Source: Rugalucina vietnamica (taxonomy: Eukaryota; Mollusca; Bivalvia; Lucinida; Lucinidae). Taken from it: 64,000 nucleotides of DNA. Below the pieces are notes generated by a model. The model saw nothing but the letters and a program-made list of their open reading frames with translations. It was not told where the DNA came from and searched no databases. How positions within the stretch are numbered: position 1 is the stretch's first letter; each line of letters opens with the position of its first letter. The DNA is taken from positions 193,501-257,500 of the forward strand of contig OZ024884.1 of NCBI GenBank assembly GCA_964017185.1, written 5' to 3'. Shown here in pieces: positions 27,413 to 48,100 of the stretch. Made by a program: the position numbers and the translations under genes.

Positions 27413-27455
27413 TTTATATTCGGCAAATAACCAGATTTAAAAGGTTCGCAAAGAA

Positions 27456-29273
27456 ATGTATCAGTATTCAATCACCGGACCGGAAGAAGAATTTTCTACT
27501 GCCAAACCGGATGACAGTCATTCGGAGCAACATCGGCTGTCAGGGTGTGACTTGTGCTACGAGGAGTCGGGTAACAAGCTCAAGGTTGAAGGCTTTTGTC
27601 AGGAGTGTAACTGTTTCTTATGCAGAACATGCGCCGACGCCCACAAGAAATCTCCCGCGTCCAAAACCCACGTGATGTTGAGAGGTGCCTGGATGCCAAA
27701 GTCCCAGGATGATAAACCTGTGAAGTACACAAGTTGTACAAAACATATCGGAAAGGTCAATGACCAATTTTGCTTGGATCATGCCGAGATGATATGTAGT
27801 CGTTGTAATGAAACCATCCATCCTCTATGCAACACAAAACCCATCGCAGATCTATGCAAAGAGCTTGAATCGAAAGATGTTGATAACTTTAAACACCACA
27901 TCGCTTATATGCATAAATCGGTTGCAACGACCAAATTAGATTTCGAAAACAACATTACTGATTTGGACATACATAGAAAGCAGGTCATTAAAGAGATACA
28001 TGGAATCCGTGATCAAATGAAAGCAAAGGTAGAGAAAATGTGTGCCGATATGGTGTCAGAAGTGGGTCAACTTTGCAAGAAGAAAACAACAAAAATATCC
28101 CAACAGCTGCTGCAGCTTTCTGATCTGAGTCAGTCCCTAAACGAAACAATATCTGACCTTGATAAAACAATACGCGGTCCAATGGGACCAAATCTTTTCG
28201 TGAGAATACAAGACATCGTAAAAAATGCAAAACATTTTGAGACCGAAATAGCAGAGCTTGATAGGGAATTAAATAAGACGGATGTGTCTTTCTTCGTAAA
28301 TCCAGAATTCTTGAATTTTGTTTCTTCGCCTAAGGCGTTGGGACAAGTTTTAGAGAAGTCGACACCCCTGGGTACGCTCAAGACGAGTCCGAAGCTCGGA
28401 TTCCCAGCTCTACCAAAACCGTCCACTCAGAGCGGCGGAAAGAAAGACAACGTGAAGATTTCGCAGTTGAACCCAAAGAAACTTGATACACTTTCCATTA
28501 AGACCGAAGATGACAGAAAGGGCTGTAAAGCGGAGGGACTGGATGTGACGAAAAATGGAATCCTCGTCGTTAGCGACATAAAGAACAGAAAGGTCAAGGT
28601 CTTTTCTCCTAAATATAGATTTCTGTCCAGCGTGTTGTTGCCAGGGCAACCGTATGACGTCACTGTTTTAAATGACAAAACCATCATAGCGACCGTGGAC
28701 CAAGAGAAATGCTTTATTATAGATATAAGCAACCCCGCCTCGATCTACGTCGAAAACTCGCTCGCATTTGGATACTTCGTTACAGGAATGACGACTTACG
28801 ATGGCAAATTGGTCGTGATACGATGGAATGAGCCACGATGTGTAAAGATGGTTACCCTCGATGGCAAAGAGCTATGGTCAACTATGCATGACAACACAGG
28901 ACAACTTCTCTTTAGATCACCGTACTCCGTTGCGACGACAGAGTTCAAAGGTCAGCCTGTTGTCCTTGTCACTGATTGGAGCAAAGAAACGTTGACCCTC
29001 CTACATGCAAGCGATGGTCGCTTTGTTGACAAATTGGAACTCAAGAGTCTCGGCCCACGCGGCCTTTCGCTTGATAGCCCTGGTAATATATACATATGCT
29101 GCAGCAAATCTGCGGAAATTCGGGTTTTGTCCCCAGATTTGAAGGGTGACAGGGTAATTTTGTCGAGAAGAGAGCTGCAGCCTGATCCGATGGATATTCT
29201 ATACAATGACACAACGGACGAGTTATTGGTTTCGTACAAAGCTGGTGATCAAGTGGACAGATTTCAACTGTAG
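27456..29273 (+). CDS. RING-less TRIM-like protein, B-box and propeller
   Basis: A 605-residue single-exon protein. Residues 31-72 form a B-box-1-like zinc site (C31, C34, C48, C51, C56, C59, H63, H72). Residues 94-125 form a B-box 2 (C94, H97, C106, H109, C114, C117, H122, C125). A helical, coiled-coil-prone stretch spans about 145-275, a Pro/Lys linker follows, and from about 335 repeated beta-strand blocks (GILVVSDIKNRKVKVFSP, NIYICCSKSAEIRVLSPD) look like an NHL-type propeller. No RING finger precedes the B-boxes, so ubiquitin-ligase activity is not supported. A scaffold, RNA-binding or innate-immune role is inference from TRIM relatives. The ATG sits in GAAATGT. A possible acceptor, AACCAG, lies about 25 bp upstream, so a 5' non-coding exon is conceivable. 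The frame is intact. Confidence 0.88.
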   Translation: MYQYSITGPEEEFSTAKPDDSHSEQHRLSGCDLCYEESGNKLKVEGFCQECNCFLCRTCADAHKKSPASKTHVMLRGAWMPKSQDDKPVKYTSCTKHIGKVNDQFCLDHAEMICSRCNETIHPLCNTKPIADLCKELESKDVDNFKHHIAYMHKSVATTKLDFENNITDLDIHRKQVIKEIHGIRDQMKAKVEKMCADMVSEVGQLCKKKTTKISQQLLQLSDLSQSLNETISDLDKTIRGPMGPNLFVRIQDIVKNAKHFETEIAELDRELNKTDVSFFVNPEFLNFVSSPKALGQVLEKSTPLGTLKTSPKLGFPALPKPSTQSGGKKDNVKISQLNPKKLDTLSIKTEDDRKGCKAEGLDVTKNGILVVSDIKNRKVKVFSPKYRFLSSVLLPGQPYDVTVLNDKTIIATVDQEKCFIIDISNPASIYVENSLAFGYFVTGMTTYDGKLVVIRWNEPRCVKMVTLDGKELWSTMHDNTGQLLFRSPYSVATTEFKGQPVVLVTDWSKETLTLLHASDGRFVDKLELKSLGPRGLSLDSPGNIYICCSKSAEIRVLSPDLKGDRVILSRRELQPDPMDILYNDTTDELLVSYKAGDQVDRFQL

Positions 29274-29380: not shown

Positions 29381-30144
29381 ATGCATTTTAAGGCTATATG
29401 TTTGATGTACTTCCTACAAATTCCGGATATGAACATAATGCAGCCTCGTTTCAGGAAAATATCATTTGGTGCCAACGTCTATGTTTCGGACAGTTGGTTT
29501 TGTTTGTTTGATTTGTGGTTTGGCGCCCCAGTCAACATTAATGGACATGTCAGGATGTTGTCTCCATTTTATGGTACTTTTACCCAACATCAGGATCTCA
29601 ACATCAGGATGTCATGACATCCAAAATGAGATTTAATGAAAATATAATCATCCAACCAAACAGCTAAGTTTTATATGTATGTGCGGTTTGACTTGAAACC
29701 TCTTTTCCTTGGCATGCTCGGACCTTCAGAGCGATTAACCAGTAATCTAATGGTCAGTCAGTAGCTGTTAAGCTGTGCAGGTTGTGTGGCTTTGTTGGCC
29801 GTTTCTTACAAATAGCTCTGTAAATCCAGGAAATAAATTTATTTTTATTATATACACATTTTTTCTCTATCGTGTTTGTGTTGTTTTAGCAAAAACGGGC
29901 AACAAGACAGTGCTGGAATTGTCTGTTATCTTTGCCATTCTTTACCTTGATACATCATTAATGAGCTACTTACCAGTACACAGTGAGTATTCTTTCACAA
30001 ATAACGGAAAACTATGAAAATAATATGCATAATCCAGAAATCGTGTTCCCTAACTTAAGACTTGGACGAAAGACCATGCAAGCCTACAAGTTCAATAATC
30101 AAAAAGGATGTTTGGTGTTGATAGAGCAGGTAGCCATTGTAATT
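29381..30144. other. no recognised feature
   Basis: AT-rich spacer. Frames 29381-29617 and 29775-30017 have hydrophobic stretches but no other support. Confidence 0.3.
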
Positions 30145-30430
30145 TGCATTACGAAAACTTGCCCATGCAATAAACAGAGATTTTTTGAGCTTTAAAAATT
30201 GACAATTTTCAGTTGAAAAGTTTTCATATTTTCTTATTGTTGCTCAAAACATAGTTTGTGGGTACACGTTAGAACTGCCTCGGCGAGGCGGTTCTAAAGA
30301 GCACTCACAATCAACTTTTTGAGCAAAAATAAGAAAAATGGGTATACCCCTGCATACCCCAGTTTTGCTATATAAAAGTGGGATTTAAAGGCGTATACAT
30401 TTCAGGGACATGTCTTCCTGATGTATTTAT
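30145..30430 (+). repeat. dispersed repeat H
   Basis: CATTACGAAAACTTGCCCAT, CAAAACATAGTTTGTGGGTA, CCTCGGCGAGGCGGTTCTAA, CTATATAAAAGTGGGAT and GGACATGTCTTCCTGATG in order. The internal TATAAAAG recurs in most copies. Confidence 0.75.
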
Positions 30431-30774
30431 TGTAGCAAACTGGTCAAAATTTAAACAAAAATGTCTAATTATTGGAGCCCAATAGCAATCCGCCTCATCC
30501 ACCGCCCGTCTCAGTTACTATAGATCGGTAAATGTTTGTCCAAATGGCCACTACAACTGTTCTGCCTGATATGCTGTATTAGTACTTTTTACCAGAGTTT
30601 TTGATGGACCAAAATATGTTCTCGCCCGATTTTTCACAAACAGTACTGTAATTTTTAATTAGATGCTGTTTTATAGTAGTTAGGCACGAAGTTCACAATT
30701 TAGAAAGTTCTGTGGTAGTGTAAGAGCTAGAGTTAACAAATAAATCTAGCTTTGTAAGGTCTTTTTTGAAAAAG

Positions 30775-30950
30775 TGCAAGTAGGCAATGATCAGGAAATA
30801 GCTAAATCAGAAAGAAAATCCCACTCCAAAAACCGAGGTGGGAAAAACTCTGATTAGGACTAAGAAAACATATCATAAGCCGAGTGAGCAGCTATTTTCC
30901 AATAGGTGGCCACTCAGACACCCAAATCCAACTAAAAATACACAGTATGG
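30775..30950 (-). mobile_element. Penelope-like module A, partial
   Basis: CCCACTCCAAAAACCGAGGT, GCAGCTATTTTCC and AATAGGTGGCCACTCAG in reverse orientation. The GGCGCC end is missing. Confidence 0.65.
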
Positions 30951-32480
30951 TATTACATGTGCGTATTTTCGTAAAATAAAACTAAATATAAAAATGCGTG
31001 TCTTAAACGTAACAAAATCGGTAGGATATTTTCTTGGCAAAATAGCGTTCGCATTTACAGCATGAATTCCGAATAGGACCAGCACAGCAGCCGGCTTTCC
31101 AACAACCATCTTGTCGCTAGTAAAGCTTGGTGAAAAGGCTTAAACCGAGTATTCTTTGCTACATCACTTGAAAACTTCATTTCGAAACACACAAATTTGC
31201 TTGCAGGTCTTTTAACTGCAATTGAGAACGAAGTTGAGGCTAGATTTTCAAGTTTTCTTCTACTGACACTGATAGATAGGTGCAGTCAATGCAGAAATTG
31301 ACCATTCATTGAAAGAAAGTAACATAAGAAATCCCAGTTATTTCGTTTTCCAACACAATAACATTAAACAATGGTCAGAAACTGTTGCAATATGATCCAA
31401 CGCCCATGTGGTTGAGTACCTTATACGTAGTTTTGCTTCTGTTTTCAAGATAAAAGATGCCTATGAAAGTTAAAACTGAAAACCTAATTCTTGTTTTTCG
31501 GAAAAAAGCAGCCTCTGCCCTCCATTTGATTCTAGGGCGTTCGAATCCCTCCTAATCGGCTGGTGTTGTAAATTAATATTCGGTAAAATTTCAGAGTAAC
31601 TTTGAGCGATTATGTCAAAACATTGCATTTTTCCATGAAAACAAACAGTAAAGATAAATGATGCAAGTTTCGTTTGACAATGTTTGATTATGTAACTCCC
31701 TTGTTCGTCTTCAAAGCGCATGTGAATCAAACGACACCAAGGACACGATTTTAAGGAAACTTCTACGGCAGCTTTAAGTGTTTTTTTTTATTAAAACAAA
31801 GACCTTGATCTTTAAATTGGTTAAATTACTGTAACTTGATTCAAGGTGAAGCGCACAAGGAAAATTGAAATTCTCTAGCCTTCAATGTTGCATCAGATTT
31901 TTTCGCTTTTGTATGTTCATTTCAAAATCAGGAAGATGCAGCCAAAATTTAGACAAGGAAAATTCTGTTCAACAAAAGTCTTCAAAATGCTGCAATTAAC
32001 CAATCAAAACCAAGGCTTAGTCCCAACGAGGAACATCTGAACAGTTACTGCATAGGTATACGAAAGTGGAGTGGACCGTCCTGATATCCTTGAAACTTTC
32101 TTCCCTGATTTACTGGTCGGCTTCAGTGGAGGCCCAAAATTATCCTTGAAACTTACCAAGGTTTCTTCAGTTTACTGTAGCCGACACATGGGAAAATGCT
32201 GATTCATACATATGATTCGATTAGCAATTCAGATCAGCTGCCCGTAGCGGGGCCACTGATCAGCAATTTTGTATTTCTTCACAGACAGTGACATGTGTCA
32301 AAGCTTTCCGGTTTGTGTTTCATCTGCAAAGAATGCTGACACAGAGCTAATGTTCATGTAAGAGCACGAGAGCATGACCTTAAATTATGACTAACCGATG
32401 AGGATGATTCTTAGCTACCATACACTGCCAATTTTCTACTGAGCATGCGCATAATATCTTGATTTGAAGTGGCGCCGCGA
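30951..32480. other. upstream region of the cysteine-rich gene
   Basis: No ORF or repeat I can define. Short CTTGAAACTT direct repeats lie at about 32088 and 32144. The last 40 bp are relatively GC-rich. Confidence 0.3.
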
Positions 32481-32490
32481 GGACAGTCAA

Positions 32491-32497
32491 TATAAAT
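32491..32497 (+). promoter_or_regulatory. TATA box of the cysteine-rich peptide gene
   Basis: TATAAAT in GTCAATATAAATGCTG, 84 bp before the ATG at 32575. A start site about 30 bp downstream would leave a 5' UTR of about 50 nt, a compact inducible-gene layout. Confidence 0.6.
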
Positions 32498-32574
32498 GCT
32501 GAAGTTTTACACTGTGTGGCATAAAACTTTGGCGCAGTCATCAGAGAAAGGCGAAAAAGGCACCAATCGTCGAT

Positions 32575-32623
32575 ATGAAAGCATTAGTATTCTTTGGTTT
32601 GGTTATGATTGCCGTGACATTGT
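32575..32623 (+). CDS. exon 1, signal peptide
   Basis: Encodes MKALVFFGLVMIAVTL plus one base. The donor GTAAGT at 32624-32629 is a perfect consensus. Read through unspliced, the frame stops within about 13 codons. Confidence 0.7.
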
Positions 32624-35600
32624 GTAAGTGTTTCATATTTTATATTTGCTTGTCTTTGCTTTGACCAGGGTTTTCCGAATACATTTCAGTAACTGTAAAA
32701 TGCGCACTTTGAAAAAACATTCTATTCCTAGAACCATGATTTGATGATTTGATTTTAACTTAGTGTCTATACATTGTGCGCTGCTCTTCAGCGGCTCAAT
32801 ACAAAACATCATATTTTAATATTGCTCTGTTTTAACGTCATTTTCAACAATTACTTTCATGTCTGACCGGTGTTTCCATGTTCACATAAGGCTTAAAATA
32901 TACATGGAACATATGACATAAAAACAAAGCTTTTGAAGTGGTGGAACAAGACTTCATATTACTGATCGTTCCAAGGCGATATTTCTGTGGTGGTTCTTAT
33001 TGTTTTATGTCTTGGTGTTTAAATTTTGTTGTGCTGTTGGCGCCACATTTTAAGTTAAGTTTAGGTAACTGAGTGGCCACCTATTGGGAATATAGCTACT
33101 CATTCGGCTTACGATAAAATTCCTTAATTAAAAATCTTTAAAAAGAAGGTTTTGAAGATGTGATTGACAGATTATAACATGTGCATTTTGGCAATAGCCC
33201 TAAGTACCATTTCTAGACCATTATCAGTCCTCCAGCTAGTGTAAACATATTTTATTGCAAAGTCCTCCAGGTGATACTCTTGGGATTGATAATGGCTTCC
33301 GGGTTGAGAATACGGGCGATAAACAAAATGCCCATGTGATAATCTCTAAGTATCAACCACTAGTGAACATATCATAGTGGAGCTGCTTAATGTGAAAATA
33401 CTTCAGTTGATGATACAAGCATGAAAATTTCACCATATGTTCTTTACATGACACACATTAAATTCTGATCTCTGGCCACTTGAAATTCTGCCATTTTCAA
33501 GATGGCCGCCAAAAACAAAATGGCCGACAGTTGTGAAAGTAGTATATGTAGTAATTGCTCATATCTTAAGTTCTTTTCATCATAGAACAATAATATTGAT
33601 ACCAAAATGCAGCTAAATAATTGTTCTTTGAAATAAAGTTCTAATATGAAAATTACCTTATTTGCATATTTATGAATATTAATGAGATCTTACTCTTCTG
33701 GCAAAAAATTGAGAAAAAAAACACATCTTATATTCTGAACAATGTAAAATATTAAATGAAATGGATAACTATGGCTTTGATATTGCTAGAACATAAATTA
33801 TCATTAATTAACAAAGGCTAATTAGCATGTTGATGAATATTCATTTTAAACCATTTTAAGACTTTGTATGCCCTTATCTATCAGTTATGTTTAAAAAGTT
33901 CATACAGTTAATTGCTTATAGCTTAGGTTCTGTTCATCATACGTAGGTTGTTCGGAAAGTTCGTGTAATTGTGTCATATCTCTCATAATTTTCATCCATT
34001 GTACTGGAAATTTGGTGTGCGTAAACTTCCACTTCTTCTAAATTGTTGATAGGAAAAAGAAAGAAAAGTGATCATAGAAACCAAAAGTACAGGTTGCCGT
34101 GGCAACGTCATCATCGGTACCCGGAGCAGTCCGAAAAAATATCACTTTTTTAAATGAAGCCTTACAGAAATAAACATTATTTCTGACTGTTTGTCCATCG
34201 CCAGAAAAGCATGGAATCGTCTTGTAATATTTCAACATCATGACATTGCTTCCTGAAAATTTCAAATCAATGGGATGTTTCATAAATTAGTTATGGTCCT
34301 TTATTGAGAGGTTTGTATTTGTACTTTACCATGACGTCAAACTGTGTCCTTGCGTTGCAAAAGATTATAAACTACTGTATTGTCGTCATAAAACACGGAC
34401 AGAAACACTTAAGATAGTAAAATAAACTGGAAAACTATGAAACATAGTTCAGCATTTATGTACAAATAATTCGCATGTTTTAAATGTGGAATAAAAGCAA
34501 CTGGTGGCGATTTTAGAAGTAGCCAACCGGTAGTAGTATTGTTGTCCGTTAAGAATTGCAAAAATTGGAAGATTCAGCGAAGAATATTAGCCAAAAAGAC
34601 TCAGGGAGATGTATCACCACATACTGATACTGGTTACGAAAACTAATAACAAAAGAATTGACAGACACATTAAATTCGTAGATTTTGTTGGTGTTTATGC
34701 TGACGAGGGTGATCGTCGCCAACGGGATTAAAATAAAATTTGACGTATTCGAAACGTCATTTTGACTTTGGCGTGCTCCGGGTACCAATACCTCACTGTT
34801 TTGTAATGAACATATTTTTGTTATGTCTTTGTGCATCATCTTCGTTTTCACAGCATTTAAAGAGGACATGTTGAAGCTAAATCAGGTATGTTTTTTTTTT
34901 GTTTTACTATGAATATTAGTTGAATGATCAATTAATAATTTGAACTTTCCGAACGCCCCTTGTAGAACATCAGTATTGATAGCAAAATGAAGCATAATGA
35001 TTGTTCTTTCCAATGAAGTTCAAATATGCAAATTACTTCATTTGCATATTTATGAATATTAAAAGGTCTTATTTTGTTGCCAAAAAACTTGAAAAAAAAA
35101 TCACATCCCATTCTCTAAAAGATGTAAAATGATAAATGAGATTGATAACTGTGGCTTTGATATTTCTACACCATAAAGAATCATAAATTAATAACAGCCA
35201 ATTAGCATATTCATGAATATTCTTAAATACTTCAAGACTGTATTAGTCTAGTTAAGAAAGTTCCTTCTAAATTGTCTATAATATAACTTTCATTGTAAAA
35301 TAAATGTCATTAATACAAGATATATGTCATTGTACTTTCTTTCTTATCTCGCACGTGTTCACTGGTTAACCGAATATCAAAATGTATTAATCATGTAAAA
35401 ACGCATGTTTGATCCCTATAGTGCATACCTATGCATATATTTAAACAAGGCACAGCTGAAATCGGGATCACGGCGCAAGGAACCTTTGATTCCACTGCAT
35501 TTCTTGTAGATCCAGGTCAAGCATCCACCACAGAAGACAGCATTTCTTCCTACACCTGTCTGACAGACGCTACAGGGATTATTTCCAGATTTTGTTCAGA

Positions 35601-38600
35601 AGGTTTAGATTGAGGCCAGAGACCATGATCTTTGTCTTCCCCATGTTCACTCAAAGAACTTTCCTCTCCATCTCTGCTTTCCAAGTCATCAACTTAACAG
35701 GTAGTTCATCCATGGACTCGACAGTGTCATATCAGAAGTCATCTGCATACAGCAGAACCAAAGGGCAGCCTTTGCGGAACTCCCTAGATAAAGCCTATAG
35801 CACAAAGATGAAGAGTAGCAGGCTAAGGACAGAGCCCTGATGGACACCTACTTTGACAACAAACTCCTCACTGTATCCACTTCCCACTTTAACCCTGCTT
35901 CTCATGATCTTATACATAGACTGGACCAGACGCACTAGTCATTCGTCAATTCTTAGTTTCGCATTGCCCACCAGATTACATCCCTCAGGACTTGATCAGT
36001 TGTTTTCTTCAGATCAACGACGGCGATGTAGAGCAGCTTGTTAGTGCCCAAGTGCTTCTCTTGTATTTGATAAACACATCAATCAGTTAAATAAAAATTC
36101 ATAATTTATAATTGCCAGTACGGCTCATTTAATGGGCGACAACATACTTGCAAGTTCTTAGCTAATAGCTTTCTCCAAATACACATGGTAACAGTAGTCT
36201 AACCCGGAACATTAGAAACTTTTGAAGTTTAGGCCAAGGAGGCGATCGTACCTTATATTGAGTCATATGCCGGAAAACATTCCAGTGTTTTTTTTTTTTT
36301 TTTTTTTTTTGTTGTTTTTATTTATCACCAAGATAGTCTCAACGATGAGACCAGGCAGAAAATAGTAACTGGTGTATACCGAAAGGTAATTGGTAACTGC
36401 AGACCTCCAAAATCATGGAACAACTTCATCAGATGTGATGAAAACAAAACGGAAATATTTGGGTTTCTTGTAGGTAAATTTATTCTTGCACAGAATTATG
36501 CACAGGTCATAGTGACAAAAAGAATGATGTTGTTTGCAATGTAGAAATTAAGTTTTTCAAGACTTAGCTCCCACCTTTTGAAGGAAAGCACAATTGCATA
36601 GATCTTATATTAATGACATTTATTTTACAATGAAGGTAATATTTATAGACAATCTACACCATGAACATTTTACATCGTTCAGTGAATAAGATGTGATTTT
36701 TTTCAAGTTTTTAGCAAAACAAAAACCTCATTTATATTCATATATATGCAAATGAGGTAATTTGCATATTTGTACTCTGTTTGAAATAACAATCATTTAG
36801 CTTCATTTTGGTATCAATATTGTTGTTCTATTATGAACAGGACCAAAGATATGAGCAATTTATTATATGAACTGATAGGTAAGGACATACAAAGTCTTTA
36901 AATATTCTAAAATGAATATTCATGAACATGCTAATTAGCTTTTGTCAATTTATGATAATTTATGGTCTAGCAATATCAAAGCCACAGTTATCCATTTCAT
37001 TTAACATTTTACATCGTTCAGAAAATAAAATATTTTTTTTCCTCAATTTTTAGCCCAAAAAGTAAGATCTCATTAATATTCATTAATATGCAAATAAGGT
37101 AATTCGCATATTGGCACTTTATTTGAAAGAGCAATTATTTAGCTTCATTTTGGTATCAATAACATTTTTTCTGTGATGAAAAGAACCTAAGATATGAGCA
37201 ATTTACTACATGTATACCTTTCACAACTGTCGGCCATCTTGTTTTTGGGCGGCCATCTTGAAAATGGTGGAATTTCAAGTGGCCAGGGATCAGAATTTAA
37301 TGTGTGTTATGTAAAGAACATATGGTGTAAATTTCATGCTTGTATCATCAACTGAAGTATTTCCTCAAAATCACATACTAAGCCGCTCCACTATCAATAT
37401 CAATTCTGCTATGAAAATATCACCTACATTCATTTTTGATATACATTGATTTCACTGCTAAGTATATAATGAATATGTGAAAATTATAATCATATCATTG
37501 ATTGCAAATTTCGTATACGTCAGCGTCTTCAGTGGAGGCAAAAGGAAATAGAAGACATAGTACAAAAGGTTCAGATAATTCTTAGTCATTATATTACTAC
37601 AAGTGTTCTCGAATTTTATTTCCATTTATGATTATTTTGGTTATTCATGCGTCTCAACACTCGATGCAAAGAAAGTGTATATGTACTGAATTACTTTCCT
37701 GTAATAGGTAGTAACTGTCATTGTAATTTAATTGAACAAATATCAACGTAAATGTAATTCAAGTAATTGTTTTTTCAAAGTAATTGACCCCAAGGCTGAT
37801 GTAGTCAAAATGTACATTCTTTCGAATAATAAACATGAATTCTGAAATGACCCTTTATCCTTGTAACAATAAGTGCACCTGATGAACTTTGATCTTAAAT
37901 GCGGCCTTATTTTAAATTCCCCATTCGAGCCACAGGGCAAAATCAGTCCAGGGATGTTTGCTGATGATTATAAGCCTAGTGGCACGTTATGCTGCCTAAG
38001 TACCCACACTTATAAACAAACGTCTCTAAAACCACATATCTTGGTGCTTGTCGTAGAAATAAAGATTGCGTTAATTTATTGTTTATATGCATAATTCCTC
38101 CTGTCTCGTTTCAGTTATTTCAAGCACGACAGCGCATTGCGAATATAGCTGGAACTGTGGACAGGGATGCTCCTGTATCTTTGGCCAGTGCTGGTGTTGG
38201 GGTCTTCCAAGGCCACGGAGTCAAGCCATTGCCACCGGTACATGTATGATATTGATCGCTTGTTTCAAAATCTATTTTAAAATCTTGCGCTTTCGAAAAA
38301 AAGCTGTACGTATACCTTGCTTTATTGATATTTAGGAATATTTAATTTGGCAGCACTAAAACAGAATATGGCTCAGTTTATCAGTACTTAAATAGCAGTC
38401 ACATATTAGCGTTAACTCGTCGCGGGCGTGTTGAAAATAAATGCAAAATTCCACATGCGCCAGATGCGCGTCAGTGACACGTTCAAAACGCGTTATGCAC
38501 CAGTCATTTGTATCCACGGCCCGGTATAGCGGGGACTCAGCGTGGCTAAAGTGCCAGGTTTTGACCTCTGATGAGTCCTGGCAGTGCCGGGGATATGCCG

Positions 38601-39766
38601 GGGTTATTTAAAATTAGATATTAATTGTATTTTTAACATTTCATTACTTTTATGGTCCTTAATTAATTTGCAAATGTTCCTGTAATTTTACACGCATACG
38701 TTCAAGCCCCTCTCTCATATTTCAGTTTCATGAGAACAACTCCAAGCTGTTGTTCCACGTTATGGTCTGCCTCCAGGGAGCCGGGGCTTTTAGCAGTGAT
38801 TTTACAACAAATCTGGCCCCGCAGAGCCGGGCTTTTAGCGGGGCTTTAAAAATTGAAAAGTTAAAAGCCCCGCTATTCTCCGGCCCTAGGGGAGCCGAGG
38901 ATACAAATGATTGGTGCACTACGTGTGCATTGGATACGCTTGGTGTGTGTTTCGTGCGAGTTTGGGCTCAAACATTTTTTAAACATGCTTAAATATTTTC
39001 TAGTAGCTCGGCGTGTCTCGTGCGTGTGTATTATACGTTTCGATTAAGTTCCATGCGCGTCGAATACGCTTTAAGTGTGTTTGGCGCATGTTGTAGGCAC
39101 GCCAATGTAAGCTACATGTGCAGTCTGATATTACGAGACATTGCTGCAGTAAGGAGCCCAAAGCGTGTAAGGGACGCCCGTTTAACGTTGATGCGCGCCT
39201 GTAGCGCGGTTCTAGGACGTAATACAAACGTAATCCAAATTTCGACGTTTTGAGATTTTTTATTCGTCCTGCATACGCATCAATCACACGCTAATGTGTG
39301 ACTGCTAAAACGAGTTAAAGAAACAAATTTATTTTTATACGTTTAGAATTTTCAGCGTGTTGAGATTTTTATACTCCCTGCGCGCGTTTGGGTTATACGA
39401 TAAGGTGCAACTGATCTTTTAAGTTTATACAAGACTCAAGGGAGCATGTAACTAAACCTCATCCTTGTCAATGAGTTGGGATAAGCAACGACGAAGAACA
39501 CACCGGCAATAAATGCTCACATCTTAATTTATCGAGACTTGTAGCTTCGTTTTGTCAATTTCAAATGAGTTTTCAAAGTAGTCTGATTCTGAACATTTAA
39601 GAATACTAATATAGAATATTTTGCTTTAGATACTGAATCAAGCAGGAGAAAACGGGGCACAGAAACATGGCCAGAATGCTGTTACTACGGTTCCTGCATT
39701 TGTGATGACTGGCTCAGCCAACTAATGAAACACCGGCAGTATGTAGATTCATCGAACAACAACTAA
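32575..39766 (+). CDS. secreted cysteine-rich peptide precursor, three exons
   Basis: Exons 32575-32623, 38115-38237 and 39630-39766 (49+123+137 bp) give 102 codons plus a stop. Both introns are GT-AG and phase 1. The product opens with a signal peptide (MKALVFFGLVMIAVTL, continuing FISSTTA, cleavage likely before HC). Next is a six-cysteine stretch, C-x5-C-x3-C-x-C-x4-C-x-C (HCEYSWNCGQGCSC, then IFGQCWCWG). A polar linker ends in SSRRKRG, a perfect furin-type site. The C-terminal part has four cysteines as CC-x4-C-x-C (WPECCYYGSCICDDW) and an Asn-rich end. The layout recalls bivalve antimicrobial or cysteine-rich peptide precursors, but the spacing matches no family I can name. Host defence or signalling is inference. 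It looks whole. Confidence 0.72.
32965..33115 (+). mobile_element. Penelope-like module A, truncated, in intron 1
   Basis: Starts TTACTGATCGTTCCAAGG and runs through CTGTTGGCGCC, GAGTGGCCACCTATTGGG and CATTCGGCTTACGA, then stops. Confidence 0.65.
33380..35245 (+). repeat. dispersed repeat E, copy 1, split by a mariner element
   Basis: CAGTTGATGATACAAGCATG, CAAGATGGCCGCC and AAATGGCCGACAG open it. Internal units of about 300-370 bp then repeat ATTGATACCAAAATG and ATTTGCATATTTATGAATAT. The element at 33942-34962 interrupts the second unit. Confidence 0.7.
33942..34962. mobile_element. 1.0-kb mariner-like element, non-autonomous
   Basis: Flanked by TA (33940-33941, 34963-34964). Joining the flanks restores the repeat E unit (CATCATAGAACA). 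The ends share GTTCGGAAAGTTC in inverted orientation. Inside, GGTACCCGGAGCA (about 34119) and TGCTCCGGGTACC (about 34775) form another inverted pair about 650 bp apart. No transposase motif is visible in frames 34038-34283 or 34549-34869. Confidence 0.7.
35425..36075 (-). pseudogene. LINE reverse transcriptase, C-terminal relic
   Basis: The minus strand gives, in order, KLLYIAVVDLKK (finger region), VGVHQGSVLSLLLFIFVL (template-grip block), LVLLYADDF (catalytic box) and, past the RT, CSVCQTGVGRNAVFCGGC and IYKKCSGIKGSLRRDPDFSC, a zinc-binding tail common in non-LTR elements. Only the last third of ORF2 remains, with several stops and frame changes. The clade is not assigned. It lies antisense in intron 1 of the cysteine-rich gene. 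Plus-strand frames here are shadows. Confidence 0.8.
36076..36639. other. intron 1 spacer with poly-T
   Basis: T-run at about 36289-36311. Nothing else recognised. Confidence 0.4.
36640..37390 (-). repeat. dispersed repeat E, copy 2
   Basis: Inverted relative to copy 1, with two internal units (AATATGCAAAT, TTGGTATCAATA) and GGCCATCTTGAAAATGG near the end. Confidence 0.7.
37380..37470 (+). repeat. repeat K fragment
   Basis: CAATATCAATTCTGC through TTTCACTGCTAAGTATATAA, as at 26490-26580. Confidence 0.55.
37525..37798 (+). mobile_element. hAT-family element, right-end fragment
   Basis: Matches the right part of the element at 56773-58522 (TTTATTTCCATTTATGA, CATGCGTCTCAACACTC, AATTGACCCCAAGGCTG). 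It lacks the repeat L block found there, so it marks that block as a later insertion. Confidence 0.65.
37799..38114. other. end of intron 1
   Basis: No repeat recognised. Closes with the polypyrimidine tract and acceptor of exon 2. Confidence 0.5.
38115..38237 (+). CDS. exon 2, six-cysteine module
   Basis: The acceptor is TCTCGTTTCAG (to 38114) behind a pyrimidine tract. It encodes the end of the signal peptide and all six cysteines of the first module. The donor G/GTACAT at 38238 is weaker but keeps phase 1. Confidence 0.7.
38238..39629 (+). other. intron 2, with hairpin and CpG-rich repeats
   Basis: A fold-back block at about 38775-38890 carries AGCCGGGCTTTTAGC motifs and an inverted pair AGCGGGGCTTT / TTAAAAGCCCCGCT. 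At 38920-39400 the sequence is rich in GCGT/ACGC motifs, unlike its neighbours. It includes two copies, about 113 bp apart, of a TTGAGATTTTT block followed by TCC and TGC (39250 and 39360). Confidence 0.5.
39630..39766 (+). CDS. exon 3, RRKR site and four-cysteine module
   Basis: The acceptor is TTTTGCTTTAG (to 39629). The frame opens DTESSRRKRG and ends at TAA (39764-39766). Phase 1 entry joins exon 2 without a stop. Confidence 0.7.
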
Positions 39767-39770
39767 ATAG

Positions 39771-39790
39771 AATAAACATTTATTAATAAA
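39771..39790 (+). terminator. poly(A) signals of the cysteine-rich gene
   Basis: Two AATAAA hexamers at 39771-39776 and 39785-39790, starting 4 bp after the stop codon. Confidence 0.6.
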
Positions 39791-39852
39791 GAGAAAATAT
39801 CCATGAAATATAGAAATTTGTACAGCTGTAGAATTGGAAAAGTTTCATTTGA

Positions 39853-40762
39853 TTTACTTGCCATTTATATTCATTATAATTACTATCATTGTATATTTTC
39901 ATTATCATTACTATCATTGTTTACTTTCATTATCATTACTATCATTGTTTACTTTCATTATCATTACTATCATTGTTTATTTTCATTATCATTTCTATCA
40001 TTGTTTATTCTCATTATCATCACTATTATTATTTATTTTCATTATCATTGCTATCATTGTTTATTTTCATTATCATTACTATCATTGTTTATTTTCATTA
40101 TCATTACTATCATTTTCATTATCATTATTATCATTGTTTATTTTCATTATCATTATTATCATTTTCATTATCATTATTATCATTGTTTATTTTCATTATC
40201 ATTACTATCATTTTCATTATCATTATTATCATTGTTTATTTTCATTATCATTACTATCATTTTCATTATCATTATTATCATTGTTTATTTTCATTATCAT
40301 TATTATCATTGTTTATTTTCATTATCATCATTATCATTGTTTATTTTCATTATCATTACTATCATTGTTTATTTTCATTATCATTATTATCATTGTTTAT
40401 TTTCATTTTCAGTACTATCATTGTTTATTTTCATTATCATTATTATCATTGTATATTTTCATTATCATTACTATCATTGTTTATTTTCATTATCATTACT
40501 ATCATTGTTTATTTTCATTATCATTACTATCATTGTATATTTTCATTATCATTACTATCATTGTTTATTTTCATTATCATTACTATCATTGTTTATTTTC
40601 ATTATCATTACTATCATTGTTTATTTTCATTATCATTATTTTATCATTGTTTATTTTCATTATCATTACTATCATTGTTTATTTTCATTATCATTACTAT
40701 CATTGTTTATTTTCATTATCATTATTATCATTGTTTATTTTCATTATCAGTACTATCATTGT
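39853..40762. repeat. 28-bp minisatellite
   Basis: About 32 units of TTTATTTTCATTATCATT plus ACTATCATTG, with shortened variants. The unit has no stop in any forward frame, and 28 is not a multiple of three. All three frames therefore stay open for over 300 codons and cycle through the same 28-residue pattern. These are not genes. The array starts 87 bp after the stop of the cysteine-rich gene. Confidence 0.93.
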
Positions 40763-41350
40763 TAAAATTCTTATGGTCAAATCACATAATGAGTATATTC
40801 GGGGATACATGTTAGAACAAAAATCTGAAGATTAACGCTTACTGCCGTACACCCATGTATATCATCAATCGAGTCAAGAAATATACACCGAGGAAAAGGT
40901 TTAGTCAGTATACTCTGGCAAGCCCCGCAACTAGTCTATTTTATCCTGCTTTCATTTATTGCATTTTCGAATAGCGATTGTGGCCAGTGACAAAAAAGAT
41001 CGAAAAATCGTAAAAGCAAATTCAGACTCAGTCTCGAGAAATAATAAGTCAAAACCATATTCGATATCCAATCGTTTTTCTATGAAATGTTAGGTTCCAT
41101 TTAGTTTTATTACTGGCAATTTCATGCCTGAACTATCAAGGGGTTTTGAAGCTTCAGTAATTTAAACGATCTCGATGGGATTTCACATGTAAGTTAGGGA
41201 ACACTTCAAATAATTTAACTTTATTCTTCTTGGAGAAATTATATTATATATATTTTTTATTTTGATGGCCGTTATTTAATAAAAGCCATGATAAGGTAAA
41301 ATTATGACTGGCTACGTACTAAACACAGCATAGACATAGTCTAGTTTTGG
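40763..41350. other. no recognised feature
   Basis: AT-rich spacer. Confidence 0.3.
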
Positions 41351-41353
41351 GTA

Positions 41354-41360
41354 TATATAA
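41354..41360 (+). promoter_or_regulatory. TATA-like box
   Basis: TATATAA, 67 bp before the small frame at 41427. Weak evidence in AT-rich DNA. Confidence 0.2.
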
Positions 41361-41426
41361 GATTCTTAAAAGTTGTGATCAATACTCACCAAGTTAATCA
41401 TTTTGCGCTAATTGTATCGCCCTACA

Positions 41427-41531
41427 ATGGTTCTACCTCCAGAAATCATAAAGCTAACCTACATTTGCACCAGTATTTTTTGGATTCTTCTGCTTATACT
41501 TCTAAAGCAATCGTATTTTACTAAAATTTAG
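41427..41531 (+). CDS. possible small membrane peptide, 34 aa
   Basis: Frame beginning MVLPPEIIKLTY and continuing CTSIFWILLLILLK before KQSYFTKI and a stop. The hydrophobic core could be a membrane span or an uncleaved signal. A TATA-like box lies 67 bp upstream. A possible acceptor (ATTTCAG) lies at about 41949, but no joined reading is compelling. Chance is a real alternative. Confidence 0.15.
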   Translation: MVLPPEIIKLTYICTSIFWILLLILLKQSYFTKI

Positions 41532-41842
41532 TATTCGAATGAAATTAACTAAGCAATTAATTACAGTCAGTTTAGCATCTCTGTTTTGCATCCGTCGATA
41601 TTTTCACGAAGGTGAAATAATTTCTATTCCATTTCGAAACATCTATTCCAAATGTAAACCAAAGCTTTGAAAATGAAATGTCCCCTATTTTTCCATGTGT
41701 ATATTTACTTGCCTCTGAGCAAATATACTTATATTATGCACCTTCTAAGGCACACACTTTGGGGCCGCGCAATGACAATTTAAATGGGAAAACAGCTTAT
41801 GTCTCTGTAAAGGGAAGACAATCTGTTACTTTTCCTTCGTGT

Positions 41843-41880
41843 TTTTTCTTTTTTTTTTCTTTTTTTTTTTTTTTTTTTTG
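41843..41880. repeat. poly-T tract
   Basis: Interrupted T-run, producing a polyphenylalanine frame that is not a gene. Confidence 0.9.
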
Positions 41881-42634
41881 CTTATTAATGATGCATTTAA
41901 TAAGGCCTAGGATCAAACTATATACTGAAATCTTTTATATCATTTCAGGAGGAAATGATCAAGATCGTTCCTGCAAGTTAAAGACAAAGCCGCTAGAAAG
42001 CCGTTCTAATGTTGCTTCTATTTACATCATTTTCATTTCCGTTTTAGGTATTTGGGTATAACACGCTGTGTGAGATAGGGTCGGTAGTTTTTGCCTGGGC
42101 ATATTTGTCCGTTAATTTTGACGTACTATCAAAACTTAATTTTCTTCTTCAACGATTTGTGATTGCAATCAGATAGAAATCCGAAATTATATGAACATTA
42201 TGAACAAACAAGGCAAGTAAGGTTTATGTGTATGTATCGGAGTTGCTTCCGGAAAGCAATTGTAAATACAAAAATGTTCTGTGTGTATTTTGAATGTGAT
42301 TTTGAACTTTCCTAAAACGGGTAGAATAAGTTACAAAATAAAAGAACATTTAGTTTGGTTAAATTTCTTCGGAATTTAATTGTTTGAGAGGGGTGATCGC
42401 ATATAGTGTTCAGTGCGTTGAATGTGGTAATTCTAGCTCTCTTATTTAAAAGCTTTTCAATAAACACTCACTAAAACGTATATTTGTTTTCACTAAATTC
42501 CAACAGGAGCCAATTTTCTTGATTGTAGCTTCGACACACCTAACACAAGAAAACCCCTGAAACATGGTTACTTCTACATTTTACTTGACATATGGTAAAT
42601 ACTATTTGCATAATGCATAAATACAAGTTTGAAG
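41881..42634. other. no recognised feature
   Basis: Spacer without ORF or repeat. Confidence 0.3.
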
Positions 42635-42990
42635 AAAAAGGCACAAGTAGGCAAAGATCAGGAAAAGGCGCAATCAGAAAAAGATTACCTTTCCAAAAAA
42701 CCGAGGTGGAAAAGTTCTAAATTTACAATCAGGTAATTATACCATGAAAACTTATCGTAAGCCGATTGAGCAGCTATTTTCCCAATAGGTGGCCACTCAA
42801 TTACCTAAACTTAACTAAAATATGAAAACATAATTACATAAGGCGCCAACAGCACAAAAATTTTTAACGCCAAGACTAAAACAAAAAGAACCACCATAGA
42901 AGTATCGCCTTGGAACGATCAGTAATATAAAATTACTTGCGGGCTTAAAACGATTTTACATGGCCATAACATAACCGATTTTACCGAATG
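42635..42990 (-). mobile_element. Penelope-like module A plus 3' UTR
   Basis: Module A in reverse, then CGCCTTGGAACGATCAG and TTACTTGCGGGCTTAA, the RT-unit tail. Joined in the same order as at 49000. Confidence 0.7.
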
Positions 42991-43299
42991 CGAATATTGA
43001 TATTATATACAACAAGAGGACCAATAGTCCTGAAGGTGCTCTCTTGAGCTTTTGTCTTTGAAAAATGATATTTGGCTTAGGTCATTTTGGCCAAGTGCAA
43101 AATAACATTGGCCTTGAAAACTCGCTTGACTCATTCCTTTTTCTCATTAATATGCTCACTGCTTTTACAGGATCTCAATTTTATTTTCATTATCATTACA
43201 TTGTGGTATGGACACATTTTCGAATTGAATTCTGCGTTATCTTAAAAAATGTTACAACTCATAAATCAAAATTTTAGAGGGTTACACATCCAAATAAAA
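42991..43299. other. repeat B terminus and spacer
   Basis: AGAGGACCAATAGTCCTGAA at about 43017 is the palindromic terminus of repeat B. The rest is not recognised. Confidence 0.4.
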
Positions 43300-43560
43300 T
43301 AAAACTGAGATCCTTTAAAAGCAATAAGCATATTCACGAAAAAAGGGATGGGTCATACCGCGGTTTCGGCTACTTAAGCCTCTTCAGTGACCCTCTGAAT
43401 TTGGTAAAATGGAGCCAAAGAGGAATACTGTAATTGTTGCATCTTGCAACAGGATAGTCGATACAATGGCTAGTATTATCCAAATAGAGTCAAATATATA
43501 AACGTAGGTTAGAAAATGTATCTTAACCGATTATTAATTTCTAATTTCTCAGAAAACCTA
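43300..43560 (+). repeat. dispersed repeat F, copy 2
   Basis: CATACCGCGGTTTCGGCTAC through ATGGAGCCAAAGAG and a TTAACCGAT/TTTCTCAGAAAA tail shared with 54285-54550. Confidence 0.7.
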
Positions 43561-43744
43561 TATCAGTGGATTGAGCATTGTTCTGATACAAAGCAACATT
43601 AACAGTTTAGATCAGTCATAAGTGAACATGAAATTATAAGGCTCTGAACCTCTATTATGACGTTCAATTATGACGTTAAATTTATCAACTCATAAACTGG
43701 CGTAGTGCTATGTTTACAGCTCACGTAACTAGAATGTGTTTTCT

Positions 43745-44470
43745 ATGTGAAAACTGATGTCTCCCCCTGTCAAAGTGCATGTCCAAAATATGCAAGAAAG
43801 AGTTATAGTTTTTGTGCATCACATATCCTGCCATTCTGTTTTATGAGTGTATCAGGTTTCATTGAAATATCTCTTACCGGTTTTAGTTATAGAGTAGCCA
43901 CGAAATTGTATGGAAAATAATCAAATAGAAATAACTCCAAAAACACAAGCAAGAAATATAATTCCTGTACATGACACATCGTTCTATTGTGTTTTATAAG
44001 TGTATCATGTTTCATTGAAATATCTCTTATTGTTTTTGAGTTATAGAGCGGACACGAAATTGTAATGAAAATGGAAAATAACTCCAAAGATATGCAAACA
44101 AGAGTTATGGTATTTGTGCATGACACATAATCTCACCGTGCTTTATAAGTGTACCAAGTTATATTGAATTATCTCTTACGGTTTTTGAGGTGTAGAGCCG
44201 ACACAAAATTGTATGGAAAATAATCAAAGGGAAATAACTCAAAAGCTATGACAGCAAGAGTTATGATTCTTGTGCATGACGCAATGTCTCATCATGCTTT
44301 ATTAGTGTATTAAGTTTCATTGAAATATCTTTGACGGTTTTCGAGTTATAGAGCGAACACGATTTGTGACGGACAGACAGACAGACAGACGGACGGACGG
44401 ACGGACAGACGGACGGACGGACGGTCGGACGCACGGGGAAAAACAATATGTCTCCCGACCCTTCGTGGGG
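43745..44470 (+). repeat. tandem repeat I with GGAC microsatellite
   Basis: Four units of roughly 140-160 bp, each with a GAGTTATG-like block, TGTGCATGAC, TTTATAAGTGTA and TTGAAATATCTCTTA. They are followed by a GAC(G/A) tract (44368-44430) and the palindrome GTCTCCC...GGGGAGAC. Frames here are artefacts. Confidence 0.75.
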
Positions 44471-44763
44471 AGACATAATAATTGCAATTTCTGATTTAAA
44501 AAAATAAATTTTCACTCAGTGCATGTTTGTAAGGTAACCAAGATTCTGCAAGTATAAAATCATTCTTTTTGTCGTTTTAATATATCTGTGCAAGTATTTT
44601 AATGTTTGACTACATGTGTCTGTGTACATAATGTATACAGTTCTTAGAAAAGTCATTGAAAGATATAAGACTTCGTCATTAAGTTGTCACAATAATGCCA
44701 ATACTTGTCAACCATCAAATTTACTTTGATTTCGCGTCTTTTTTTGACCTGATACGAAGTTGT
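44471..44763. other. no recognised feature
   Basis: Spacer before the gap. Confidence 0.3.
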
Positions 44764-44786
44764 NNNNNNNNNNNNNNNNNNNNNNN
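44764..44786. other. assembly gap
   Basis: 23 N, 49 bp before the left inverted repeat. Confidence 0.99.
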
Positions 44787-44835
44787 AATTGCACAATCAA
44801 AACTATGGGAATGAGACGAATTGGCCATGTTCAAA

Positions 44836-45131
44836 GTCTCATATACACATGCATAGAGATATGTTATATTTTAACAAAGTCCCAGATGTAGATAGATTCA
44901 TGTAATGAATATAACACATAGTTCTGCAAAAAGCAATGTCAGGAGGTGCAAACGACCTTGACTAAGTACACTGTTACAAGTCAGTAGAACAATTGGTATT
45001 TCATCGATATCATAAGTAATCTCTCAATCCAATGTCTAGATGGATTGACAAGTGCACTTGCTAAGGATAAAGCACGTTTGAGGCATTTGATTGAAGTGTC
45101 TGTCTGAAGCAGCAAAACAAACATAGACAGT
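44836..45131 (+). repeat. left 296-bp inverted arm
   Basis: Begins GTCTCATATACACATGC and ends AACATAGACAGT. Tandem array B starts at the next base. Confidence 0.9.
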
Positions 45132-48100
45132 GGAGCATCCATGGGTAGGGGAGACGAAAGTTTGATCGCGAAATCCAGGTCACATGACCAAGATGGCCGC
45201 CACGCCCATATATGGTAAAAACCACTCAAAAATCTTCTTCTCCAGAACCGGTGGGCCGATTTTCACGAAACTTGGTATGTAGCATCAAGGACCTCAGCCC
45301 ATCATAGTTTGATAAAATGATGACCCTTGGATGACCTTGATCTATTTTACGGCAAGGTCAAATTTGGAAACGTAGGCTTTTACATAGGAAAAAGTGAAAA
45401 CTATGGAATTTTTTGAAATCTGTTGCAGTCTTAGGCCTGAAAAGTGGTAGATGCAAACAACTAATGGAGTAGATGAAGGTATGTGATTAATATAGGTCAA
45501 GGTCATCTCTTGACCTTGGCCAGTCTGTTGTCCATACACACTTTTCAAAGATCTTCTTCTCTGAAACTGCGCGACCAATCAAAGTGAAATTTTATGTGGA
45601 GCATCCATGGGTAGGGGAGACGAAAGTTTGATCGCGAAATCCAGGTCACATGACCAAGATGGCCGCCACGCCCATATATGGTAAAAACCACTCAAAAATC
45701 TTCTTCTCCAGAACTGGCTGGCCGATTTCCACGAAACTTGGTATGTAGCATTGAGGACCTCAGCCCATCATAGTTTGATAAAATGATGACCCTTGGATGA
45801 CCTTGACCTATTTTACGGCAAGGTCAAATTTGGAAACGTAGGCTTTTACATAGGAAAAAGTGAAAACTATGGAATTTTTTGAAATCTGTTGCAGTCTTAG
45901 GCCTGAAAAGTGGTAGATGCAAACAACTAATGGAGTAGATGAAGGTATGTGATTAATATAGGTCAAGGTCATCTCTTGACCTTGGCCAGTCTGTTGTCCA
46001 TACACACTTTTCAAAGATCTTCTTCTCTGAAACTGCGGGACCAATCAAAGTGAAATTTTATGTGGTGCATCCATGGGTAGGGGAGACGAAAGTTTGATCG
46101 CGAAATCCAGGTCACATGACCAAGATGGCCGCCACGCCCATATATGGTAAAAACCACTCAAAAATCTTCTTCTCCAGAACTGGCTGGCCGATTTCCACGA
46201 AACTTGGTATGTAGCATTGAGGACCTCAGCCCATCATAGTTTGATAAAATGATGACCCTTGGATGACCTTGACCTATTTTACGGCAAGGTCAAATTTGGA
46301 AACATAGGCTTTTACATGGGAAAAAGTGAAAACTATGGATTTTTGAAAACTATTGCAGCCTGAGGCCTGAAAAGTGGTAGATGCAAGCAACTAATGGAGT
46401 AGATGAAGGTATGTGATTAATATAGGTCAAGGTCATCTCTTGACCTTGGCCAGTCTGTTGTCCATACACACTTTTCAAAGATCTTCTTCTCTGAAACTGC
46501 TTGGCCAATCAAAGTGAAATTTTATGTGGAGCATCCATGGGTAGGGGAAACGAAAGTTTGATACCGAAATCCAGGTCACATGACCAAGATGGCCGCCACG
46601 CCCATATATGGTAAAAACCACTCAAAAATCTTCTTCTCCAGAACCGGTGGGCCGATTTTCACGAAACTTGGTATGTAGCATCAAGGACCTCAGCCCATCA
46701 TAGTTTGATAAAATGATGACCCTTGGATGACCTTGACCTATTTTACGGCAAGGTCAAATTTGGAAACGTAGGCTTTTACATAGGAAAAAGTGAAAACTAT
46801 GGAATTTTTTGAAATCTGTTGCAGTCTTAGGCCTGAAAAGTGGTAGATGCAAACAACTAATGGAGTAGATGAAGGTATGTGATTAATATAGGTCAAGGTC
46901 ATCTCTTGACCTTGGCCAGTCTGTTGTCCATACACACTTTTCAAAGATCTTCTTCTCTGAAACTGCGCGACCAATCAAAGTGAAATTTTATGTGGAGCAT
47001 CCATGGGTAGGGGAGACGAAAGTTTGATCGCGAAATCCAGGTCACATGACCAAGATGGCCGCCACGCCCATATATGGTAAAAACCACTCAAAAATCTTCT
47101 TCTCCAGAACTGGCTGGCCGATTTCCACGAAACTTGGTATGTAGCATTGAGGACCTCAGCCCATCATAGTTTGATAAAATGATGACCCTTGGATGACCTT
47201 GACCTATTTTACGGCAAGGTCAAATTTGGAAACATAGGCTTTTACATAGGAAAAAGTGAAAACTATGGATTTTTTGAAAACTATTGCAGCCTGAGGCCTG
47301 AAAAGTGGTAGATGCAAACAACTAATGGAGTAGATGAAGGTATTTGATTAATATAAGTCAAGGTCATCTCTTGACCTTGGCCAGTCTGTTTTCCATACAC
47401 AGTTTTCAAAGATCTTCTCTGAAACTGCGCGGCCAATCAAAGTGAAATTTTATGTGGAGCCTCCATGGGTAGGGGAGACGAAAGTTTGATCGCGAAATCC
47501 AGGTCACATGACCAAGATGGCCGCCACGCCCATATATGGTTAAAACCACTCAAAAATCTTCTTCTCCAGAACCGATGGGCCGATTTCCACGAAACTTTGT
47601 ATGTAGCATTGGGGACCTCAGCCCATCATAGTTTGATAAAATGATGACCCTTGGATGACCATGACCTATTTTACGGCAAGGTCAAATTTGGAAACATAGG
47701 CTTTTACATAGGAAGAAGTGAAAACTATGGATTTTTTGTAAACTATTGCAGCCTGAGGCCTGAAAAGTGGTAGATGCAAACAACTAATGGAGTAGATGAA
47801 GGTATGTGATTAATATAGGTCAAGGTCATCTCTTGACCTTGGCCAGTCTGTTGTCCATACACACTTTTCAAAGATCTTCTCTGAAACTGCTTGGCAAATC
47901 AAAGTGAAATTTTATGTGGAGCATCCATGGGTAGGGGAGACGAAAGTTTGATCGCGAAATCCAGGTCACATGACCAAGATGGCCGCCACGCCCATATATG
48001 GTAAAAACCTTTCAAAAATCTTCTTCTCCAGAACCGGCAGGTCGATTTTCATGAAACTTGATATGTAGCATTTGGGACTCCAGCCCATCATAGTTTGTTG

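What the first reader, a model, noticed from the sequence alone, without database searches (positions are those of the whole stretch)
32575..39766. Unlisted three-exon gene for a two-module cysteine-rich secreted precursor
Three short exons, each below usual ORF cut-offs, join in phase into a signal peptide, a six-cysteine module, an RRKR cleavage site and a second module with CC-x4-C-x-C. TATA box, consensus first donor, both acceptors and adjacent poly(A) signals all agree. Neither cysteine spacing matches a family I can name, so one gene may yield two mature peptides of a new bivalve class.
Basis: partly seen in the sequence, partly recalled or inferred. Interest (0 to 1): 0.82.

Follow-up and report, generated by a model that had tools for sequence, protein, structure and literature searches.

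The report
Cysteine-rich secreted peptide gene family
This looks like a real, easily missed gene for a small secreted cysteine-rich precursor, one of a little family with other copies elsewhere in the same genome; what the peptides do is still unknown.

Summary
Exons 1 and 2 are now supported by homology: the same genome holds three more genes, on C10, with four copies of the six-cysteine exon. All five module exons are phase 1-1, divisible by three, and keep six of six cysteines. The leader exon, found in three of the four genes, is always 49 bp, phase 1, followed by GTAAGT, with TATAAA 84-98 bases before ATG. Exon 3 (RRKR, CC-x4-C-x-C) has no copy elsewhere; the other three genes end in a short cysteine-free exon. 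It is likely but unproven, and its cysteine part weakly resembles half of the same module, so "two modules" may be one and a half. Pfam, NCBIfam, PDB and paper searches did not name the family. Weak matches are mostly knottins, none significant. The peptides are not cationic. Host taxon, expression and function are untested.

The parts
32491..32496 (+). TATAAA box, 84 bases before the ATG; the two paralogous genes with a found exon 1 have TATAAA at 98 and 85 bases
32575..32623 (+). exon 1 (coding part), hydrophobic leader MKALVFFGLVMIAVTL, phase 1, donor TGT|GTAAGT
   Evidence: same length and phase in two paralogous genes (L020:5111-5159, L016:78-126)
32624..38114 (+). intron 1, 5491 bases (4838 and 265 bases in the two paralogs with a found exon 1)
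38115..38237 (+). exon 2, end of signal peptide (cleavage expected after STTA) and six-cysteine module C-x5-C-x3-C-x-C-x4-C-x-C
   Evidence: four paralogous module exons
38238..39629 (+). intron 2, 1392 bases
39630..39766 (+). exon 3, RRKR site, then CC-x4-C-x-C peptide and stop; unique in the genome, not shared by paralogs
39771..39790 (+). two AATAAA poly(A) signals starting 5 and 19 bases after the stop codon

Best explanation
A protein-coding gene of a small family of secreted, disulfide-rich, knottin-like peptides. Exon 1 carries the signal peptide, one phase 1-1 exon carries the six-cysteine module, and a last exon carries the tail. SHOWN by sequence and paralogs: exons 1 and 2, their splice phases, six conserved cysteines and a coding pattern of conservation. 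INFERRED: the signal peptide is removed near A23|H24; a furin/prohormone convertase cuts after RRKR; exon 3 is the true tail here and releases a second, four-cysteine peptide that is probably a cut-down copy of the module's second half; the products act outside the cell as compact binding peptides, most likely defence or inhibitor-type effectors (about 40%), next hormones or neuropeptides (about 25-30%).
For: Module exon found at three other loci, four copies: E 0.0045 and 0.275 from the window module; L011 finds the window back, E 0.0039; L012 finds L016b, E 2.4e-4; L016b finds L012, 9.2e-5, and L016a, 0.00132; L016a finds L016b, 0.00237. Lengths 123, 126, 129, 138, 147, phase 1-1 in 5 of 5. 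Identity at codon positions 1/2/3 is .576/.589/.442 over 394 codon pairs of exon 2.500/.515/.389 without shared Cys, and .69/.79/.33 over 48 pairs of exon 1. Exon 1 is 49 bp in 3 of 3 genes where it was found; no such site in 3.2 Mb of simulated DNA. L016 has two tandem module exons in one gene. Exon 3: phase fits; chance rate 0.0125 per 8 kb; two poly(A) signals. Of 17 in-phase terminal candidates in 38238-45000, it is the only one with RRKR, and of 15 relaxed candidates with two or more prolines in 38238-48000 none looked to me like the paralogs' tails. Weak PDB and Foldseek matches include many knottins.
Against: No transcript evidence. Exon 3 has no relative, a weak acceptor and a poor preceding donor; the three paralogous genes end in a cysteine-free exon, and their first poly(A)-type signal lies 135 to 440 bases after the stop rather than 5. 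Profile matches to solved structures are not significant (best E 0.057); Foldseek has none at E <= 0.001; models are low confidence (mean pLDDT 64.4 and 64.8). No convincing first exon of the L011 gene was found in about 20 kb upstream. L012 and L016 searches did not return the window exon; the link runs through L011 and through the window's own search.
Confidence: 0.72

Rival explanations
1. Exons 1 and 2 are real, but the gene ends in a different terminal exon; 39630-39766 is chance or an alternative tail, so only one six-cysteine peptide is made.
For: The three paralogous genes end in a short cysteine-free exon containing prolines; exon 3 is unique; in-phase terminal candidates are common (17 in 38238-45000; 13 loose cysteine candidates on the window's + strand), and one other (38890) also has four cysteines.
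Against: An in-phase exon with four basic residues in a row and four cysteines is expected 0.0125 times per 8 kb; poly(A) signals follow at once; none of 15 proline candidates looked like the paralogs' tails.
Confidence: 0.22
2. A neuropeptide or hormone precursor, for example of the oyster GSWN type or an orexin-like CC-x4-C-x-C peptide, cut at RRKR and released from neurons.
For: RRKR site; oyster GSWN precursors also hold two cysteine-rich peptides (PMC8398477 passages); the CC-x4-C-x-C order is like orexin-A (recalled); module 1 contains YSWN.
Against: No C-terminal glycine for amidation, which starfish orexin-type peptides have (PMC4772807 section 26); no GSWN in the 102 residues; likeness of exon 3 to this family's own module may explain the spacing. 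GSWN sequences were not in the text I could read, so no direct comparison was made.
Confidence: 0.25
3. A cationic membrane-active antimicrobial peptide like mussel or oyster defensins.
For: Small secreted cysteine-rich peptides of molluscs are often antimicrobial (general knowledge).
Against: Computed pI 5.44 and 4.43 for the two window peptides (taken without RRKR), 6.17, 5.51 and 4.45 for the paralogs; no Pfam family at its cut-off.
Confidence: 0.1
4. Chance alignment of splice-like signals; no gene.
For: Exons 2 and 3 alone, loosely defined, are within chance.
Against: Paralogous exons with conserved phase, cysteines, leader length and TATA position.
Confidence: 0.02

Closest known systems
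Squash trypsin inhibitor / cyclotide-type knottins (EETI-II, MCoTI) and engineered versions
   Different: By recall, the first knottin cysteine is missing here and an extra C-x-C cysteine follows; no match is significant; the squash inhibitors are plant proteins, so convergence is likely.
P-superfamily (framework IX) cone-snail peptides Gm9.1 and tx9a
   Same: Five cysteines of the window module fall on cysteines of Gm9.1 in the profile alignment (E 0.19; tx9a E 1.0).
   Different: Not significant; same loss and gain of one cysteine (recall); no evidence of venom use.
Mussel CRP-I peptides
   Same: Small secreted cysteine-rich precursors, dibasic cleavage, some with several arrays (PMC10138031 passages).
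   Different: CRP-I has C-C-CC-C-C, always in the fourth and last exon even when repeated; here six single cysteines in an internal exon, which is itself present twice in one paralog.
Oyster GSWN neuropeptide precursor
   Same: Two cysteine-rich peptides in one precursor (PMC8398477 passages).

Membership tests
This genome's own six-cysteine family (window, L011, L012, L016 genes) | six cysteines in one phase 1-1 exon divisible by three | tested here: met
   5 of 5 module exons
This genome's own six-cysteine family | 49-bp leader exon, phase 1, GTAAGT donor | tested here: met
   window gene and 2 of 3 paralogs; no convincing one for L011 in about 20 kb upstream
This genome's own six-cysteine family | short cysteine-free last exon | tested here: not met
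   met by the other 3 genes, not by the window gene as modelled. Not treated as defining: the window gene is filed by exons 1 and 2
Inhibitor cystine knot / knottin | a loop of several residues between Cys5 and Cys6 (recalled) | tested here: not met
   one residue between the last two cysteines in 5 of 5 modules
Inhibitor cystine knot / knottin | knotted fold and disulfide pairing 1-4, 2-5, 3-6 (recalled) | tested here: inconclusive
   low-confidence models; weak matches only; pairing not measured
Mussel CRP-I | C-C-CC-C-C array in the last exon | tested here: not met
Orexin-type peptides | C-terminal glycine for amidation after the cysteine peptide | tested here: not met
   precursor ends SSNNN-stop; feature from PMC4772807 section 26
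Oyster GSWN precursor | conserved GSWN sequence and potentially amidated cysteine-rich peptide | tested here: not met
   neither present in the 102 residues; feature from PMC8398477 passages
Oyster GSWN precursor | conserved cysteine positions | not testable with these tools
   the text gives no sequences; figures are not held and supplements were not available
Cationic antimicrobial peptides | net positive charge | tested here: not met
   pI 5.44 and 4.43 without RRKR

The most novel reading that the evidence does not exclude
A new animal family of exon-modular, knottin-like secreted peptides with a shifted cysteine frame (one knottin cysteine lost at the front, one gained at the back), in which one gene turned its tail exon into a second, separately cleaved half-module, so that one precursor releases two different disulfide peptides.
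Probability: 0.4. Interest if true: 0.55.

Novelty: new variant of a known kind. Interest (0 to 1): 0.4.

Why it matters
Genes made of tiny exons far apart are missed by ORF scans; here paralogs turned a guess into a supported gene family. If the products prove to be folded knottin-like peptides, their cysteine frame, and the step from one to two peptides per precursor, would be worth studying. Without expression, taxon and activity it remains one more uncharacterised cysteine-rich peptide family.

Tried and rejected
Orexin: the CC-x4-C-x-C spacing suggested it; dropped because there is no amidation site and because the module family offers a nearer possible source for the spacing.

Chance-only reading: the loose simulations gave no excess for exon 2 or exon 3 alone; rejected for exons 1 and 2 after paralogs were found.

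Weak genome hits L017, L018 and L040 were set aside as chance: L017 has two stops; the L018 match has only two cysteines; L040 lies in a 452-residue open frame and its letters were not read one by one. None of the three passed the inclusion threshold of the module profile.

Terminal exons: 17 in-phase candidates in 38238-45000 and 15 relaxed ones with two or more prolines in 38238-48000, about ten of them inside the 466-bp tandem repeat; only 39630 has RRKR.

First exon of L011: two candidates of other lengths and one low-complexity candidate in about 20 kb, not accepted.

Pfam matches to CART (E 0.057, 1 of 3 members; E 0.056, 1 of 5) and BIV_Env (E 0.042, 1 of 5) were taken as chance. NCBIfam: 0 of 5 members. 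PDB with the exon-3 peptide alone: one match, complement C5a, E 1. Papers were searched for the peptide letters (20), for GSWN (33), for the spacing formula (94), and for mollusc neuropeptides and bivalve cysteine-rich peptides (14, 26, 74, 96): nothing that names this family was seen in the listings or passages; sequences shown only in figures or supplements cannot be found that way. A paper search on two-domain arginine kinase (104) did not help.

Host taxon: one arginine kinase (L045) matched PDB entry 4rf6 best, which by recall is a sea anemone enzyme; this neither supports nor excludes a bivalve. Two further family searches meant to settle it did not complete.
Full report
THE OBSERVATION. 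The three exons lie at the stated places: 32575-32623, 38115-38237 and 39630-39766. They join to 309 bases, a 102-residue protein and a stop: a signal-type leader MKALVFFGLVMIAVTLFISSTTA, a six-cysteine stretch C-x5-C-x3-C-x-C-x4-C-x-C, RRKR, and a stretch with CC-x4-C-x-C. The first donor is consensus and the first acceptor strong; the second donor (CCG|GTACAT) and second acceptor (11 of 18 pyrimidines) are weak. TATAAA begins 84 bases before ATG and two AATAAA begin 5 and 19 bases after the stop. No signal-peptide program was available; the leader was judged by hydrophobicity.

CHANCE. Loose tests do not separate exon 2 or exon 3 from chance: one acceptor giving a six-cysteine internal exon on the window's + strand against 0-3 in 20 simulations, and 13 terminal candidates with four cysteines and a dibasic site against 1-22. 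Tighter tests, set after seeing the gene, do: a 49-bp hydrophobic leader exon with GTAAGT occurred 0 times in 400 simulated 8-kb stretches, and a phase-1 terminal exon with four basic residues in a row and four cysteines 0.0125 times per 8 kb, against one of each in the window stretch tested.

PARALOGS. A protein search of the whole 1.09-Gb genome (window = C16:193501-257500) with exon 2 found two further exons on C10 (L011, E 0.0045; L012, E 0.275). Searching with L011 returned the window exon (E 0.0039). Searching with L012 found the second module of L016 (C10:22.665 Mb, E 2.4e-4), about 28 kb from L012. The second module of L016 found L012 (9.2e-5) and the first module of L016 (0.00132); the first module found only the second (0.00237). 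Searches from L012 and L016 did not list the window exon. Read in full, L016 is a gene with a leader exon, two tandem module exons and a tail exon; L012 has leader, module and tail; L011 has module and tail, with no convincing leader in about 20 kb upstream. A profile scan of the window and 32 fetched loci, which overlap one another, showed no further module above the inclusion threshold (the profile was built from these five, which match it by construction).

WHY EXONS 1 AND 2 ARE REAL. All five module exons are phase 1-1 and of length 123, 126, 129, 138 and 147. Seven columns are invariant, six of them the cysteines; the gaps between cysteines 2-3 and 4-5 vary a little among paralogs. The three leaders found are exactly 49 bp, phase 1, followed by GTAAGT, and read MKALVFFGLVMIAVTL, MRAFVFLCLTLLVATL and MKAFGFLCFAVLIAAL. 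Under the criteria the window's 30001-38115 holds only this leader candidate. TATAAA lies 84, 98 and 85 bases before the three ATGs. Pairwise identity by codon position is .576/.589/.442 for exon 2 (394 codon pairs).500/.515/.389 without shared cysteines, and .69/.79/.33 for exon 1 (48 codon pairs), as expected for coding sequence.

EXON 3. It is unique: a protein search found only itself and a DNA search only itself plus a 70-base match on C12 that lies wholly beyond the stop codon. The other three genes end in a short exon without cysteines (GEAAPMDPPVNRQ, GLPEPRGQQLENQQ, GPDPRAPENPPGDDDDK), and their first poly(A)-type signals lie 135, 401 and 440 bases after the stop. In the window, 17 in-phase terminal candidates lie in 38238-45000, of which only 39630 has RRKR, while one other (38890) also has four cysteines; of 15 relaxed candidates with two or more prolines up to 48000 none looked to me like the paralogs' tails. 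The exon-3 peptide scores 9.1 bits against the module profile; 8 of 3000 free shuffles and 112 of 3000 shuffles with cysteines fixed reach that (the test was run after the likeness was noticed, and the profile includes the window's own module). In the six-frame scan the same stretch ranked among noise (E 1.7). I read it as a probable half-module in a changed tail exon; a missed other terminal exon is the main rival.

MECHANISM. Most likely: secretion, removal of the leader near STTA|H, convertase cleavage after RRKR, release of one six-cysteine and one four-cysteine peptide, which bind targets outside the cell. Defence or inhibitor-type effectors are my first choice, hormones second. None of these steps was tested.

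LITERATURE. Mussel CRP-I (passages of PMC10138031) has another cysteine array, always in the last exon. The oyster GSWN precursor (passages of PMC8398477) also has two cysteine-rich peptides, but GSWN and an amidation site are absent here, and its sequences could not be read. Starfish and crinoid orexin-type peptides (section 26 of PMC4772807; passages of PMC9793003) have a C-terminal glycine for amidation; this peptide has none. Passages of PMC5996578 on cysteines described nothing with this arrangement.

LIMITS. No relative outside this genome was or could be compared.

Noticed in passing
L025:3941-6524 (C10:22663940-22666523), also L016: A paralogous gene with two tandem six-cysteine module exons and an acidic tail ending GDDDDK; with L012 it forms a small cluster on C10.
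   Followed up: yes
39864-40763: A 28-bp tandem repeat array (33 copies) starts about 100 bases after the stop codon, just beyond the poly(A) signals.
   Followed up: no
45130-48292: A 466-bp tandem repeat, 6.8 copies, 94% matches.
   Followed up: no
27441-29273: A 610-aa open frame with a B-box match below the curated cut-off and an NHL repeat match above it, TRIM-like.
   Followed up: partly
61514-63085: A 523-aa open frame with a PHD finger, E 7.6e-9; possibly part of a mobile element (guess).
   Followed up: partly
L045:1084-2169 (C13:45.86 Mb): An arginine kinase open frame of 361 aa whose best solved relative is 4rf6, a 718-residue chain (sea anemone by recall), ahead of single-domain arginine kinases.
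   Followed up: partly
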